The notes under the pieces are model-generated. The model was not told the origin of the DNA, ran no database searches, and saw nothing but the letters and a program-made list of their open reading frames with translations. From the NCBI GenBank assembly GCA_020629935.1, contig JAHDCJ010000002.1, forward strand, positions 28,307-72,500: a stretch of 44,194 nt of DNA, written 5' to 3'. Below are positions 37,676 through 43,895 of the stretch, piece by piece. Position numbers and translations under genes: made by a program. Numbering within the stretch: position 1 is the first letter of the stretch; each line of letters opens with the position of its first letter. The stretch is from Saprospiraceae bacterium (GTDB lineage: Bacteria > Bacteroidota > Bacteroidia > Chitinophagales > Saprospiraceae).

Positions 37676-38674
37676 ATGAAAATAGGAATTACTGGAGCTA
37701 CGGGACATGTAGGAGCTGCTTTATGTAGGGCATTATTGCTAGATGGAAATCATCAAGTTCGTGCCTTAGTTCATCGAAGCAAAAACCAAGCGCTTTCTGG
37801 TTTGGAACTCGAAGAACAGAAAGGAGATATTCTTGACTTGGATTCTATGCGACAATTTACGGAGGGCTTAGATGTAGTTATTCATCTTGCCGCAAAAATA
37901 TCGATTGATGGTGATCCTGATGGAAGTGTGTATAGGATCAATGTAAATGGAACCCAAAATGTGGTGCAGGCAGCTTATGATAACGGCGTGAAAAAGTGTA
38001 TTCATTTTAGTTCTATTCACGCCATGAATCCAACACCTTTAGATAAGGAGTTAAATGAAACAAGACCTTTGGTTGGCGAGGATTGGAAAGGATCAGCCTA
38101 TGATCAATCCAAAGCGGAAGCAGAAGTTTTTTTACAAACATTTATGAAAAAAACAGGATTTCATATCGTCATTATTTCCCCAACCTCTATCATTGGCCCT
38201 TTTGATTTTGGCCCTTCTTTACAAGGCTCGGCTTTGCTTGATATGTATTATGGAAAACTTCCTGCATTAATAAAAGGGGGATATGATTGGGTAGATGTTA
38301 GAGATGTAGCTCAAGGGACAATACAGGCCATGAACAAAGGAAAGGCCGGAGAAAAATATTTACTTTCGGGACATTTTATGTCATTGAAAAAAATGGCTGA
38401 TTTTGTCGCTTCATTGAATGGGAAAAAAGGCCCAAAATTGGTCTTGCCGTTTTGGCTCGCTGCCCTCGGCGTGCCTTTTGCTAAAATTCAAAGTAAACTG
38501 CGAGGCATCCCACCTGTATTTACACACGAAGCATTACATGCCATCAAATATGGAAGTACGCCAATTAGCCACGCAAAGGCATCTTCTGCGCTCGATTATC
38601 AACCTAGAGCCATTGAAGAAACACTAAAGGATGCCTTAGATTGGTTGGTTAAAAATAAAGCCAATTCTAGTTAA
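37676..38674 (+). CDS. NAD(P)-dependent epimerase/dehydratase-like extended SDR
   Basis: 332-aa extended short-chain dehydrogenase. The Rossmann motif ITGATGHVGAALCRALL is at the N-terminus. DILDLDSM carries the adenine-binding Asp, VVIHLAAKISIDGDPD is the NAG-like region, and the catalytic Tyr-Lys pair is in SAYDQSKAEAEVF, followed by SPTSIIGPFDFGPS. This resembles dihydroflavonol reductase/3-beta-hydroxysteroid dehydrogenase-like SDRs (hopanoid-associated epimerases are close). The real substrate is unknown. The 3' end overlaps the convergent tyrosinase gene by 4 bp. Confidence 0.88.
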   Translation: MKIGITGATGHVGAALCRALLLDGNHQVRALVHRSKNQALSGLELEEQKGDILDLDSMRQFTEGLDVVIHLAAKISIDGDPDGSVYRINVNGTQNVVQAAYDNGVKKCIHFSSIHAMNPTPLDKELNETRPLVGEDWKGSAYDQSKAEAEVFLQTFMKKTGFHIVIISPTSIIGPFDFGPSLQGSALLDMYYGKLPALIKGGYDWVDVRDVAQGTIQAMNKGKAGEKYLLSGHFMSLKKMADFVASLNGKKGPKLVLPFWLAALGVPFAKIQSKLRGIPPVFTHEALHAIKYGSTPISHAKASSALDYQPRAIEETLKDALDWLVKNKANSS

Positions 38675-39483
38675 ACACTCAAAGATTTATAGGTATAAGA
38701 AAGCGCAGAAGTATTGCTAATGTCTTTATATCGAGTAGCCCAAGGGTCCATAATTGCATCATTGTCCATCAAAGGCGGATGTTGATCTGGATGATCTTGT
38801 TGCCATATATACCAAAGCCGATCACATTCGGCATGATGCATCCAAAAAATAGGATCAGCAGGGGAGTACATCGTATTCATAGTACCTCCAACCCAGCCAT
38901 GTACGAGGTTATGTGCGCCCCTAGGTTCCATGCCTTCAATTGCCATACTAAAACTTCGGAAATCTTTATTTTCTAATCGCGAACGGATATCTTTTTTCGT
39001 AGGCAATTCAGATCCTTCACTGGTTAATGATCGGTACACTGAATACGTTTCTCCAGCACGATTTACTAAATTTTTAGGTTCGAATTTTTTTAACCAATTC
39101 GGAAACCTTCTACGTCTTGTCCAACGCCAATAAGGAATAAAATTATACTTGTCTACTTCTTGAAGTTTTTCTTCTAGCTTAAGTAAATACACTCGATGCC
39201 AAGGCAAAAACCGAAAGCCTGCAATAATATCACAACGCCCTGTCATCATATTGCATGTATGCATCCGATGCATCATGTTGCCGTGAATATTTACATGTTC
39301 ATTATACCAACCATCTTTGATCAATGCTTTCATACTCTTCAAAAATCGCTCTTTCTGAAGCTTTGTCATTTGCGCTTCGCTTTTTCGAATGGTTTTACGA
39401 CCTGCATATTTTCTTTTAAACAAAGCACGTAGTTGTTCTTCAATTTCTGGAGGAGACATTTTCATGTCGGTAAATTTCAACAT
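38671..39483 (-). CDS. Tyrosinase-family protein with atypical CuA site
   Basis: 270-aa protein of the tyrosinase/hemocyanin type-3 copper family. The CuB site is complete: HNLVHG gives two His and FWMHHAECDRLW the third, and SPADPIFW is typical. The CuA region shows FLPWHRVYLLKLEEKL, but the residue nine positions before its WHR histidine, where the second CuA His normally sits, is Ile (CDIIAGFRFLPWH). Several His occur earlier (NIHGNMMHRMH). There is no signal peptide. Possible activity is phenol or catechol oxidation, as in melanin synthesis, but copper loading is uncertain. Confidence 0.85.
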   Translation of the reverse strand: MLKFTDMKMSPPEIEEQLRALFKRKYAGRKTIRKSEAQMTKLQKERFLKSMKALIKDGWYNEHVNIHGNMMHRMHTCNMMTGRCDIIAGFRFLPWHRVYLLKLEEKLQEVDKYNFIPYWRWTRRRRFPNWLKKFEPKNLVNRAGETYSVYRSLTSEGSELPTKKDIRSRLENKDFRSFSMAIEGMEPRGAHNLVHGWVGGTMNTMYSPADPIFWMHHAECDRLWYIWQQDHPDQHPPLMDNDAIMDPWATRYKDISNTSALSYTYKSLSV

Positions 39484-39679: not shown

Positions 39680-40726
39680 ATGATTCCATTAAGCTTTAGT
39701 GATATAAAAGTGCATCGTTTGATTACACACCATGTAGGGAATAAACACAGAGAAGAATCTGTTTTTCTTTCAGAAACAATTACTGAAATTGAAGACGAAA
39801 CAATGGATTTTTTGCTTAAGTATTTTTTGCATCCGTTTAACTCAGAATTGTATTATCGCTTTATGCATACGGTAGACGTAGAGATGAACGATGTATTTTC
39901 ATTGACTAAAAAATTATTTGATTCGCCCAATGAGTTTGTGGAAATTTCACAACATCTAGCGCGATTGCTTTATGATTATTCTACACACCCTAGAATTGAA
40001 ATGGGTGAACTGAATGTCGTTTATTTTTCCAATATCGTTTTGGATGATGAAATCGTAGAAGCCATTGGTATATTTAAATCAGAAACTCAAGTTCCGTTTT
40101 TGAAAATGAATACCAAAGACAAAGCCTATCACATTGATCATGAATTTGGTTTTGAATTAAAAGGAATCGATAAAGCAGCTTTAATTTTTAATACCGAAAA
40201 TGAAGATGGATTTCGGGTTTTAATTAAAGATCATAAAAACAAAACAGAGGATGCACAATATTGGAAAGATGATTTCTTGAAATTGGAACATGTAAGTAAT
40301 GCCTTTTATCAAACAACCCAATTTTTAAATGTAGCTAAAGATTATTTGACGCATAAAATCTCAGAAGATTTTGCAGTAGAAAAAGCCGACCAAATTGATC
40401 TAATGAATAAGTCGGTTGGGTATTTTAAAAATAATGAATCCTTTAATAAAAATCAATTTGAACAAGAAGTCTTAGGTGATGATGAATTGATTGAATCGTT
40501 TCGAAATTTTGAGGAAGATTACAAAACTTCCAATAACGTAGCATTCAAAGAAGACTTTGAAATTTCTGGACAAGCAGTAAAAAAACAAGCAAAAGTTTTT
40601 AAAAGTGTATTGAAACTCGACAAGAACTTTCATATCTATATTCATGGAGATCGCAATTTGATTGAGCGAGGACAAGAAGAAGATGGAAGAAAGTTTTATA
40701 AAGTCTATTATGAAAATGAAGAGTAA
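39680..40726 (+). CDS. Nucleoid-associated protein, NdpA/YejK family
   Basis: 348-aa cytoplasmic protein of the 37-kDa nucleoid-associated family. The N-terminal IKVHRLITHHVGNKHREESVFLS, SQHLARLLYDYSTHPRIEMGELNVVYF, ETQVPFLKMNTKD and the late blocks VSNAFYQTTQFLNVAKDYL and FHIYIHGDRNLIERG match this family. E. coli YejK binds nucleoid DNA and interacts with topoisomerases, but the function in Bacteroidota is not known. It appears monocistronic and converges on the CvfB-like gene with a 16-bp gap. Confidence 0.85.
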   Translation: MIPLSFSDIKVHRLITHHVGNKHREESVFLSETITEIEDETMDFLLKYFLHPFNSELYYRFMHTVDVEMNDVFSLTKKLFDSPNEFVEISQHLARLLYDYSTHPRIEMGELNVVYFSNIVLDDEIVEAIGIFKSETQVPFLKMNTKDKAYHIDHEFGFELKGIDKAALIFNTENEDGFRVLIKDHKNKTEDAQYWKDDFLKLEHVSNAFYQTTQFLNVAKDYLTHKISEDFAVEKADQIDLMNKSVGYFKNNESFNKNQFEQEVLGDDELIESFRNFEEDYKTSNNVAFKEDFEISGQAVKKQAKVFKSVLKLDKNFHIYIHGDRNLIERGQEEDGRKFYKVYYENEE

Positions 40727-41659: not shown

Positions 41660-42724
41660 ATGAAAAAATCCTTAAATTTGAATATGTCAGAAAAAATAAA
41701 CATCAATACCGCAGATAAATCTACGCTTTGTTCTTTGAATGGAATAGGCCCTGCTTTAGCCAAAAAAGTGATTGCTTTTCGAAAAAAAAATGGTCGATTT
41801 AAAAAGACGTCGGATTTGAAAAAAGTGCCTGGAATGCCATCGGATATTCTTTCTGAAAATAGAGGGCGTGTGGTATTAACAAATAAGGAAGCTTCAAAGT
41901 CAAAAACAAAGAAGAAGTCTAAAAAGAAGCGCAAAAAAACAAAGACGGTAGAACAGGAAGTAAGAGAAGCAGCGGATGAAATTTTGACCAATTTGATACG
42001 GAAAGGCTTTGATTTTTTCGGAAGAAAAATAAAAAAGAAGCAATCAGCTAAACCGAAAGCGGTAATTATTCGTCGAGTGAAAAAAGAGAAAAAGAAAACT
42101 AATCCTATTGCAAAATTAAAGAAAAAATCATCTTCAACTTCTCGTTTATCTAATGATCAAATTATTTCTACGGCTAAAAAATTAAAAATTCGACCTGCGG
42201 CGTTGAAAGCAGTCATTGAAGTAGAATCAAGTGGTCAAGGCTTTTTGTCTAATGGAAACCCCAAAATTTTATTTGAAGGACATGTGTTTTGGCGATCCTT
42301 ACAAGCCCTTGGAATTTCACCGAGTAAATACCAAAAAGGAAATGAAGATATATTATATCGGAAGTGGACTAAACAACATTACATTGGTGGAGAAAAAGAA
42401 TATCAACGACTTGCACGCGCCATGAAAATTAATGAAGACGCTGCGTTGAATTCGGCCTCTTGGGGCATGTTTCAAATTATGGGCTTTAATTATAAAGCCG
42501 CAGGTTTTTCCTCTGTTACTGCTTTTGTTTCGGCGCAAAAAAAATCAGAAAAAGAACAACTACAAGCCTTCTTAAATTTTACAAAGAAAAAAGGATTGCT
42601 TCGGTATTTACGTTCTTGTAATTGGGAAGCATTTGCACGAGGATATAATGGCGCAGGATTTAAGAAAAACAAGTACGACACTAAAATGGAAAAGGCATTT
42701 AAGAAATATAAAAAAATAATGTAG
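41660..42724 (+). CDS. Helix-hairpin-helix / N-acetylmuramidase fusion protein
   Basis: 354-aa two-domain protein. Residues about 9-75 are a ComEA-like helix-hairpin-helix DNA-binding module (INTADKSTLCSLNGIGPALAKKVIAFRKK...DLKKVPGMP). Residues about 75-170 are an extremely Lys-rich linker. Residues about 175-354 match the phage-type N-acetylmuramidase family (DUF3380): IRPAALKAVIEVESSGQGF with the likely catalytic Glu in VES, PKILFEGHVFWRSL, NSASWGMFQIMGFNYKAAGF and WEAFARGYNGAGFKKNKYD. There is no signal peptide, so export would need lysis or a contractile or other secretion system. Two short genes follow on the same strand. Start is ATG 41660; ATG 41684 (MSEKININ) is also plausible. Confidence 0.88.
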   Translation: MKKSLNLNMSEKININTADKSTLCSLNGIGPALAKKVIAFRKKNGRFKKTSDLKKVPGMPSDILSENRGRVVLTNKEASKSKTKKKSKKKRKKTKTVEQEVREAADEILTNLIRKGFDFFGRKIKKKQSAKPKAVIIRRVKKEKKKTNPIAKLKKKSSSTSRLSNDQIISTAKKLKIRPAALKAVIEVESSGQGFLSNGNPKILFEGHVFWRSLQALGISPSKYQKGNEDILYRKWTKQHYIGGEKEYQRLARAMKINEDAALNSASWGMFQIMGFNYKAAGFSSVTAFVSAQKKSEKEQLQAFLNFTKKKGLLRYLRSCNWEAFARGYNGAGFKKNKYDTKMEKAFKKYKKIM

Positions 42725-42734
42725 TTTTAATCTT

Positions 42735-43079
42735 ATGAATTTAAAAGAAGTAGTTTTGTTCCATTCGGTTTCGCCAACGATTAAAATTGACATTAAAGCT
42801 TTTTTTTCTAATGAAGGAAATCTGGTAGTAGATGGATATGATCGTGGATCTTTTGTAAAGGAAACGATGGGCGATTGGGATTATGAATATAGTATTACTG
42901 TGGCGAAAGATGATCTTCCTCAATTGTTCGATTTGTTTAAACTATCAGAAAATAAACATCCCAAAGAGGCCTTATTGATTTACTTAGAAAAACATTATAG
43001 TGGCAATTACGCGTTCTCTAAAATTCGGGATTTTTTGAATGCAAAGGAAGTGAAGTACACCCATTTCCATTGGAGATAA
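42735..43079 (+). CDS. Small conserved protein of unknown function, possible immunity protein
   Basis: 114-aa soluble, acidic protein that starts 10 bp after the muramidase stop, so it is probably cotranscribed. Features are a beta-rich N-terminus (LVVDGYDRGSFVKETMGDWDYEYSITV) and a helical C-terminus (LIYLEKHYSGNYAFSKIRDFLNAKEVKYTHFHW). Small proteins with this YDxG...GDxDYEY and FRDFL-like pattern are, as far as I recall, common uncharacterised genes in many bacteria, some near toxin genes. There is no signal peptide. That argues against simple neutralisation of a periplasmic muramidase, so the immunity idea is only a hypothesis. Confidence 0.7.
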   Translation: MNLKEVVLFHSVSPTIKIDIKAFFSNEGNLVVDGYDRGSFVKETMGDWDYEYSITVAKDDLPQLFDLFKLSENKHPKEALLIYLEKHYSGNYAFSKIRDFLNAKEVKYTHFHWR

Positions 43080-43112
43080 AAGAGATACTATTTTGTTTTT
43101 TAACGAAAAAAA

Positions 43113-43895
43113 ATGATCATGATGAAACCCCAATATTATTTAGTACTCATTCTCTTTAGTTTATTTGCTTGTCAATCCCCAGAAAATCCAATAGAAGAAA
43201 ATCCAAAACCTAAGCCGCCAATAAGTCGAATTGATGCCGACTCAAATGGCGTGCAAGTCTTGCCTGTCAATGAACAACCCACTTCTTTTAGTCATCTGAA
43301 AACATTGCGTTTTGATTTGTCAACAGAGCCTGCGATTCATTTTGGGGCTGATGCTAAAATAGTAAATCAACGTTTAAAAGAGAGTTCAGAAGAAGCTTAT
43401 GATTTGATTAAGGTAAAAATAAATACAAAAGAGAAGCAGGTATTTTCAATTCATTTTTCTTGGGGACCGAGTGATGACCCGCAATATTTAATTTACAAAG
43501 AAGGAAAAGAAAAGGAAGCACCATTAGATGTTTTATATGGATATGAATTGTACATTCCTGGCAATGGATATTTGTATACCGCAGGGCATGTCAATTCTTT
43601 TTTTGACCTACGTCAAAAATATAAAGTAGAAAAAGACAGCATTCGCGAAATCCAACAACCGTATAAATATGTAGGAATAAAAACAGCCCTCAATAAACCT
43701 ATAACTTTGTTTGAAAGTATAGAATATAAAAATAAAATAGCAAGCTTACCTAAAGGAGCGCCCGTCGAAGTTTTAGTGTATCAAGAAGAAAATCACTTTT
43801 TGATAAAGACCTCTTTTGGATTGGTAGGCTGGTGGGAAATGGATCAACATCTTCGAAGTGAAATAATAAATGAATTATACTTTGCTGGAGATTAA
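43113..43895 (+). CDS. Lipoprotein with C-terminal SH3-like domain
   Basis: About 260-aa lipoprotein. The signal MMKPQYYLVLILFSLFAC ends in a Cys lipobox (LFAC) and is followed by a Pro/Lys-rich tether (NPIEENPKPKPPIS). The middle is beta-rich with no recognised domain. The last 70 residues (NKPITLFESIEYKNKIASLPKGAPVEVLVYQEENHFLIKTSFGLVGWWEM) look like a bacterial SH3 domain of the kind that binds cell wall or peptides. Three in-frame ATGs lie at the 5' end; ATG 43122 gives the most typical signal peptide. It lies 33 bp after the 114-aa gene on the same strand. As an envelope protein it is the better immunity or inhibitor candidate for the muramidase, though untested. Confidence 0.78.
   Translation: MIMMKPQYYLVLILFSLFACQSPENPIEENPKPKPPISRIDADSNGVQVLPVNEQPTSFSHLKTLRFDLSTEPAIHFGADAKIVNQRLKESSEEAYDLIKVKINTKEKQVFSIHFSWGPSDDPQYLIYKEGKEKEAPLDVLYGYELYIPGNGYLYTAGHVNSFFDLRQKYKVEKDSIREIQQPYKYVGIKTALNKPITLFESIEYKNKIASLPKGAPVEVLVYQEENHFLIKTSFGLVGWWEMDQHLRSEIINELYFAGD

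What the first reader, a model, noticed from the sequence alone, without database searches (positions are those of the whole stretch)
41660..43895. DNA-binding motif fused to a phage-type muramidase, with two small downstream genes
The sequence shows a ComEA-like helix-hairpin-helix, a linker of dozens of Lys residues and a complete DUF3380-type N-acetylmuramidase in one protein without a signal peptide, followed after 10 bp by a 114-aa protein and after 33 bp by an SH3-like lipoprotein. Known muramidases of this type are phage endolysins. The nucleic-acid-binding front half is unexpected. It could be an antibacterial effector loaded by a contractile system, a DNA-uptake or lysis tool, or a domesticated endolysin, with the lipoprotein as protector. 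All three roles are inference.
Basis: partly seen in the sequence, partly recalled or inferred. Interest (0 to 1): 0.7.

Follow-up and report, generated by a model that had tools for sequence, protein, structure and literature searches.

The report
DNA-binding domain fused to phage-type lysozyme
A Saprospiraceae bacterium, like at least ten related genomes, carries a phage-type cell-wall-cutting enzyme in which the usual wall-binding part is replaced by a competence-type DNA-binding domain on a very basic, flexible tail; the fusion is real and conserved, but its two neighbouring genes do not travel with it, so the idea of a toxin with its own protector is not supported.

Summary
The fusion is real. 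The gene at 41684-42724 has a ComEA-like double helix-hairpin-helix (HhH, Pfam E=7.5e-19), a roughly 85-residue disordered Lys-rich linker (net charge +26) and a complete DUF3380/PF11860 N-acetylmuramidase (E=1.3e-69). It has no signal peptide, and the proven catalytic Glu of this family is present. It is not a one-off: 12 genes in 11 Saprospiraceae/Chitinophagales assemblies share the architecture. The Glu is invariant in all 83 domains compared, the HhH is under purifying selection, and in most members the N-terminal half is extremely basic. Related muramidases elsewhere usually carry a neutral peptidoglycan-binding domain there, and 80 viral relatives have no HhH. The neighbours are random: homologues of the 114-aa protein and of the lipoprotein lie elsewhere, next to unrelated genes, and no contractile sheath is found in the window's own genome. 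The effector-immunity cassette reading is therefore not supported, and the SH3 call on the lipoprotein is unconfirmed. Best reading: a bacterial, endolysin-derived, cytosolic muramidase that swapped its wall-binding domain for a DNA/polyanion tether. It probably acts after cell lysis, held on released DNA or on anionic surfaces; that step is inference. New variant of a known enzyme kind; moderate interest.

The parts
41684..42724 (+). HhH-muramidase gene, conserved start M9 (the ORF opens at 41660), 346 aa
   Evidence: relatives start at the residue aligned with M9 or within about 10 aa of the HhH
41687..41872 (+). ComEA-like (HhH)2 domain, ORF residues 10-71
   Evidence: Pfam HHH_3 7.5e-19; AF2 pLDDT about 80-93 over residues 1-60; Foldseek 8dss ComEA (rmsd 0.9 A) and 2duy
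41879..42133 (+). Lys-rich linker, net charge +26, predicted disordered
   Evidence: charge; AF2 pLDDT <50 over residues 68-150
42194..42712 (+). PF11860/DUF3380 N-acetylmuramidase domain, complete
   Evidence: Pfam 1.3e-69; Foldseek 5nm7, 7q4s, 7rum
42224..42226 (+). codon of the catalytic Glu (E189 of the ORF = Glu101 of AP3gp15)
   Evidence: alignment to 5nm7; invariant 83/83; Glu101Ala loses 99.4% of activity in AP3gp15 (PMC5674055)
42735..43079 (+). 114-aa protein of unknown family, 10 bp downstream; not a conserved partner
   Evidence: no confident Pfam/PHROG/NCBIfam hit; homologues unlinked to the fusion in relatives
43113..43895 (+). 260-aa putative lipoprotein, 33 bp further downstream; not a conserved partner
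   Evidence: lipobox by reading; one partial homologue (36% identity, residues 96-260) in 60 relatives, not next to a muramidase

Best explanation
It is a bacterial, chromosomally encoded descendant of phage endolysins: an intact N-acetylmuramidase made in the cytosol without an export signal. Its usual N-terminal peptidoglycan-binding domain has been replaced by a ComEA-type (HhH)2 domain plus a long basic disordered tail. SHOWN by computation: domains, invariant catalytic Glu, conservation and purifying selection of the HhH, strong basicity in most members, absence of the two neighbours from relatives. INFERRED: the N-terminal half binds DNA (or other polyanions such as LPS), so the enzyme stays on the nucleoid while the cell is intact, and on spilled DNA or anionic surfaces once the cell is lysed or leaky, where it cuts the glycan strands of its own ghost and of nearby cells.
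For: Domains and fold. Catalytic Glu E189 = Glu101 of AP3gp15, proven by mutation, and other active-site residues invariant in 83/83 domains. Fusion in 12 genes of 11 assemblies; none in 80 viral relatives. dN/dS about 0.05 for the muramidase and 0.06-0.18 for the HhH, against 0.08-0.34 for the linker. Net charge of the N-part +24 on average vs +0.6 for the PG-binding type (P=4e-5). HhH hairpin glycines kept in 11 of 12; the ComEA Lys199 position, needed for transformation in B. subtilis (PMC9747964), is basic in 11 of 12. Precedent: ComEA-type (HhH)2 domains serve as DNA tethers on other enzymes (Thioalkalivibrio DNase; PMC4777378). No signal peptide in any family member. Gene positions unrelated between genera.
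Against: ComEA Lys164, equally critical in B. subtilis, is Leu/Val/Thr in all 12, though Lys/Arg residues follow two and three positions later. The second hairpin of the window protein is degenerate (GMP). ComEA-type HhH can also bind protein (fibronectin; PMC2601033, abstract). Two members (L082, L146) lack net charge in the linker. No holin, spanin or release device is adjacent, so when the enzyme reaches the wall is unknown. No expression or activity data exist.
Confidence: 0.4

Rival explanations
1. Polycationic outer-membrane crosser: the basic N-terminal half works like the antimicrobial-peptide-like parts of Gram-negative phage lysins, carrying the enzyme released by lysis through the LPS layer of neighbours; the HhH is only part of the cationic head.
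For: Whole-protein pI 9.4-10.4 and a basic catalytic domain as well. The window linker holds a cationic stretch of high hydrophobic moment, LTNLIRKGFDFFGRKIKK (shuffle P=0.01). The related PF11860 lysin Pae87 was reported active on Gram-negative cells and has a predicted AMP-like C-terminus (PMC8185167).
Against: A moment above shuffles is seen in only 2 of 12 members. AF2 gives no helix there. It does not explain why a folded, conserved HhH domain is kept.
Confidence: 0.2
2. Domesticated endolysin for programmed lysis of its own cell or sibling cells (autolysin), with the DNA-binding half acting as a nucleoid anchor or a regulator.
For: Phage-type catalytic domain, no signal peptide, single copy in its genome, setting among ordinary chromosomal genes.
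Against: No holin, pinholin or spanin beside it, and no regulatory gene shared between loci. Sporadic: 27 of 396 Saprospiraceae genomes have any related muramidase.
Confidence: 0.22
3. Antibacterial effector of a contractile injection system with the downstream lipoprotein as immunity protein.
For: Muramidase and lipoprotein lie in one likely transcription unit. Some other Saprospiraceae muramidases (Aureispira type) do have a conserved lipoprotein next to them.
Against: Lipoprotein and 114-aa gene are not beside the fusion in any relative. No sheath in the own genome (94.7% complete) or in G428. No enrichment of sheaths in fusion carriers.
Confidence: 0.08
4. The HhH in this family is a protein- or wall-interaction module and not a DNA binder; the protein is simply a muramidase with a different anchor.
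For: HhH relatives with non-DNA roles (PsbU, T2SS protein K) appear among the hits; Lys164 of ComEA is not conserved; the HhH sits where the PG-binding domain sits in relatives.
Against: The strongly basic HhH and linker, with a Lys/Arg behind the first hairpin in all 12, fit polyanion binding better.
Confidence: 0.1

Closest known systems
DUF3380/PF11860 phage endolysins: AP3gp15 (5nm7), Pae87 (7q4s), LysT84 (7rum)
   Same: Complete catalytic domain (35-44% identity in structural alignment), single catalytic Glu, no signal peptide here as in endolysins of this kind
   Different: Those have an N-terminal PG-binding domain or none, and sit in phages; here HhH plus basic tail, in a chromosome without phage or lysis neighbours
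PG_binding_1 + PF11860 muramidases of Bacteroidota chromosomes (e.g. Chryseobacterium)
   Same: Same catalytic domain, signal-less, often one copy per genome, non-phage setting
   Different: N-terminal domain is wall-binding and nearly neutral in charge
ComEA / ComE HhH DNA-binding domain (8dss, 8dfk, 2duy)
   Same: Fold (rmsd 0.9 A), NINTA start, hairpin glycines, Lys199-equivalent basic
   Different: ComEA is exported or membrane-anchored and has no enzyme; Lys164 position is Leu here
Thioalkalivibrio DNase with ComEA-type (HhH)2 domain
   Same: ComEA-type HhH used as a tether on an enzyme
   Different: There the enzyme acts on DNA itself; here it acts on peptidoglycan

Membership tests
DUF3380/PF11860 N-acetylmuramidase | full-length catalytic domain above Pfam cut-off | tested here: met
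   234 bits vs 22.3, profile 2-175/175
DUF3380/PF11860 N-acetylmuramidase | catalytic Glu (AP3gp15 Glu101) | tested here: met
   E189, invariant 83/83
DUF3380/PF11860 N-acetylmuramidase | muralytic activity | not testable with these tools
   needs purified protein
phage endolysin (lysis gene of a phage) | phage or lysis-cassette neighbours | tested here: not met
   housekeeping-type neighbours in the window and in the other fusion loci
ComEA-type (HhH)2 domain | sequence and fold match | tested here: met
ComEA-type (HhH)2 domain | DNA-contact lysines of ComEA | tested here: inconclusive
   Lys199 position basic in 11/12, Lys164 position not basic in any
ComEA competence protein | export signal or membrane anchor | tested here: not met
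   members start directly at the HhH
effector-immunity pair of a contractile injection system | immunity gene conserved beside the effector | tested here: not met
effector-immunity pair of a contractile injection system | sheath genes in the same genome | tested here: not met
   no PF04984 or PF17482 match in G000, a 94.7% complete draft

The most novel reading that the evidence does not exclude
A lineage of Saprospiraceae has turned a phage endolysin into a DNA-tethered lysozyme: after lysis the enzyme remains bound to extracellular DNA, making the spilled DNA itself a lytic, competitor-killing or prey-digesting matrix.
Probability: 0.2. Interest if true: 0.65.

Novelty: new variant of a known kind. 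Interest (0 to 1): 0.42.

Why it matters
Swapping a wall-binding domain for a DNA-binding one on a cell-wall hydrolase is unexpected and, as far as the searched papers show, undescribed. If the N-terminal half binds DNA, it would link cell-wall digestion to the nucleoid or to extracellular DNA, and give a simple, testable design for a matrix-bound lysozyme. It also warns against calling any two small genes downstream of a hydrolase an immunity cassette.

Tried and rejected
Effector-immunity cassette: rejected on neighbours. Contractile-system cargo: no sheath in the own genome, no enrichment. Prophage remnant: no phage genes around, and viral relatives lack the HhH. A family-wide amphipathic AMP-like helix in the linker: above shuffles in only 2 of 12. 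SH3 fold of the lipoprotein: single-sequence model failed (pLDDT 34) and the HMM hit is sub-threshold. One origin for all 12 fusions: the tree joins 10 of 12 (support 81/79) and leaves L079 and L146 unresolved, so one or more origins remain possible. Paper search for HhH plus muramidase found nothing relevant.

Full report
OBSERVATION. The three ORFs exist at the stated positions with the stated gaps. The first protein has Pfam HHH_3 (residues 10-71, E=7.5e-19) and a complete PF11860 Muramidase (179-351, E=1.3e-69). It also matches phage endolysin families of PHROGs. It is the only PF11860 protein found in its genome G000. Alignment with relatives puts the start at M9, base 41684. AlphaFold2 with 12 family members gives two confident domains (pLDDT roughly 80-95) joined by a linker of pLDDT <50, residues 68-150. 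Foldseek pairs the C-terminal domain with AP3 endolysin 5nm7, Pae87 7q4s and LysT84 7rum, and the N-terminal domain with ComEA 8dss and 2duy at 0.9 A (sequence support).

CATALYSIS. E189 aligns with Glu101 of AP3gp15. The Glu101Ala change removed 99.4% of muralytic activity in that enzyme (PMC5674055). E189, E206, H208, S267, G269, Q272, G275, Y329 and N330 are invariant in 83 domains. The enzyme half is therefore probably active (inference from conservation).

HOW WIDESPREAD. A survey of 397 Bacteroidota genomes found PF11860 in 24; those first loci have PG-binding or other N-termini, apart from the window's own. Among 60 close relatives the fusion is in G399, G401, G428 and G450 besides the own genome. 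The genome collection gave 12 full-length fusion genes including the window's: L072-L080, L082, L146 and the window. All are from Saprospiraceae, Chitinophagales or unclassified Bacteroidetes MAGs; L077 and L078 are two copies in one assembly. In 396 Saprospiraceae genomes 27 have a related muramidase; 8 show the fusion and one more (G605) is a truncated relative. Of 80 viral relatives none covers the HhH and none has an HhH ORF nearby. A tree of the muramidase domain groups 10 of 12 fusions (81/79); L079 and L146 are unresolved, so one origin is possible but not shown.

THE FRONT HALF. Net charge of the N-terminal part averages +24 in fusions against +0.6 in PG-binding types (P=4e-5; related sequences, so the P value is only indicative). 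The window's best 85-residue stretch reaches +26, while the maximum in 1684 windows of neighbouring proteins is +14. Two members (L082, L146) lack this in the linker. Sequence identity is 48% in the HhH, 25% in the linker and 61% in the muramidase. dN/dS for usable pairs is about 0.05 in the muramidase, 0.06-0.18 in the HhH and 0.08-0.34 in the linker, so the HhH is kept by selection. Compared with B. subtilis ComEA, the hairpin glycines are kept in at least 11 of 12. Lys199, whose loss costs over 100-fold in transformation (PMC9747964), corresponds to Lys/Arg in 11 of 12. DNA binding is plausible but unproven. A ComEA-type HhH used as an enzyme's DNA tether is known from a Thioalkalivibrio DNase (PMC4777378), and such HhH domains can also bind a protein (PMC2601033, abstract).

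NEIGHBOURS. ORF families around the 12 fusion genes do not recur except between sister species (L072/L074 share nrd-like genes; L075/L077 share two genes). The 114-aa protein has homologues in G413 (38%) and G399 (29%), both away from any muramidase and in G399 on another contig than the fusion. The lipoprotein has one partial homologue, in G441, next to unrelated genes. The two downstream genes are thus local company. They may be co-transcribed in this genome, but they are not a conserved partner or protector.

CONTRACTILE SYSTEM. G000 has no sheath by PF04984 or PF17482. Fusion carriers have a sheath in 5 of 9 against 137 of 387 (P=0.29). The other Saprospiraceae muramidase carriers do show an excess (13 of 18, P=0.0016), but they are closely related to each other, so this is only a lead.

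MECHANISM. Most likely this is a domesticated endolysin enzyme, cytosolic until lysis, with its substrate-side anchor exchanged for a DNA/polyanion anchor. While the cell is intact the nucleoid could hold it away from the wall. After lysis it would stay on released DNA or on anionic surfaces and cut murein there. Every step from DNA binding onward is inference. Rivals are an outer-membrane-crossing cationic lysin, a self-lysis autolysin, and an HhH with a non-DNA ligand.

VERDICT. Observation confirmed, cassette interpretation not supported, architecture conserved and unusual: a new variant of a known enzyme kind.

Noticed in passing
L095:8882-9553, L116:5629-6264, L148:9156-9755: Directly downstream of Aureispira-type PF11860 muramidases lies a family of homologous lipoproteins (shared CGGxxGDP and YGGS-xRWAR-type motifs) without a confident Pfam family; a better candidate muramidase-protector pair than the one in the finding.
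   Followed up: partly
L116:4229-5536 and L116:7734-9491: Two neighbouring proteins share an N-terminal coiled region (MSEEL..EIEKLEQEVKKLKDTLKYY) but carry different wall-cutting domains (muramidase; M15 peptidase plus CHAP), like effectors with a common delivery head. Most Saprospiraceae genomes with the non-HhH muramidases also have a contractile sheath gene.
   Followed up: partly
L104:7185-9654, L112:3828-6291: Membrane-anchored muramidase of about 620 aa immediately followed by a DUF4230 lipoprotein in two Bacteroidia; L083 and L122 (Calditrichota) have similar membrane-anchored muramidases.
   Followed up: no
L103, L117: Chryseobacterium PG-binding muramidase (no signal peptide) keeps the same chromosomal neighbours, beside an adenylosuccinate-synthetase-like gene, in two species; its role is unknown.
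   Followed up: no
window 39680-40726: A 37-kD nucleoid-associated protein (NA37, PF04245, E=1.4e-27) lies two genes upstream of the HhH-muramidase; not seen near the other fusions.
   Followed up: no
window 38671-39483: ORF with His-rich motifs resembling tyrosinase/polyphenol-oxidase copper sites (by reading only).
   Followed up: no
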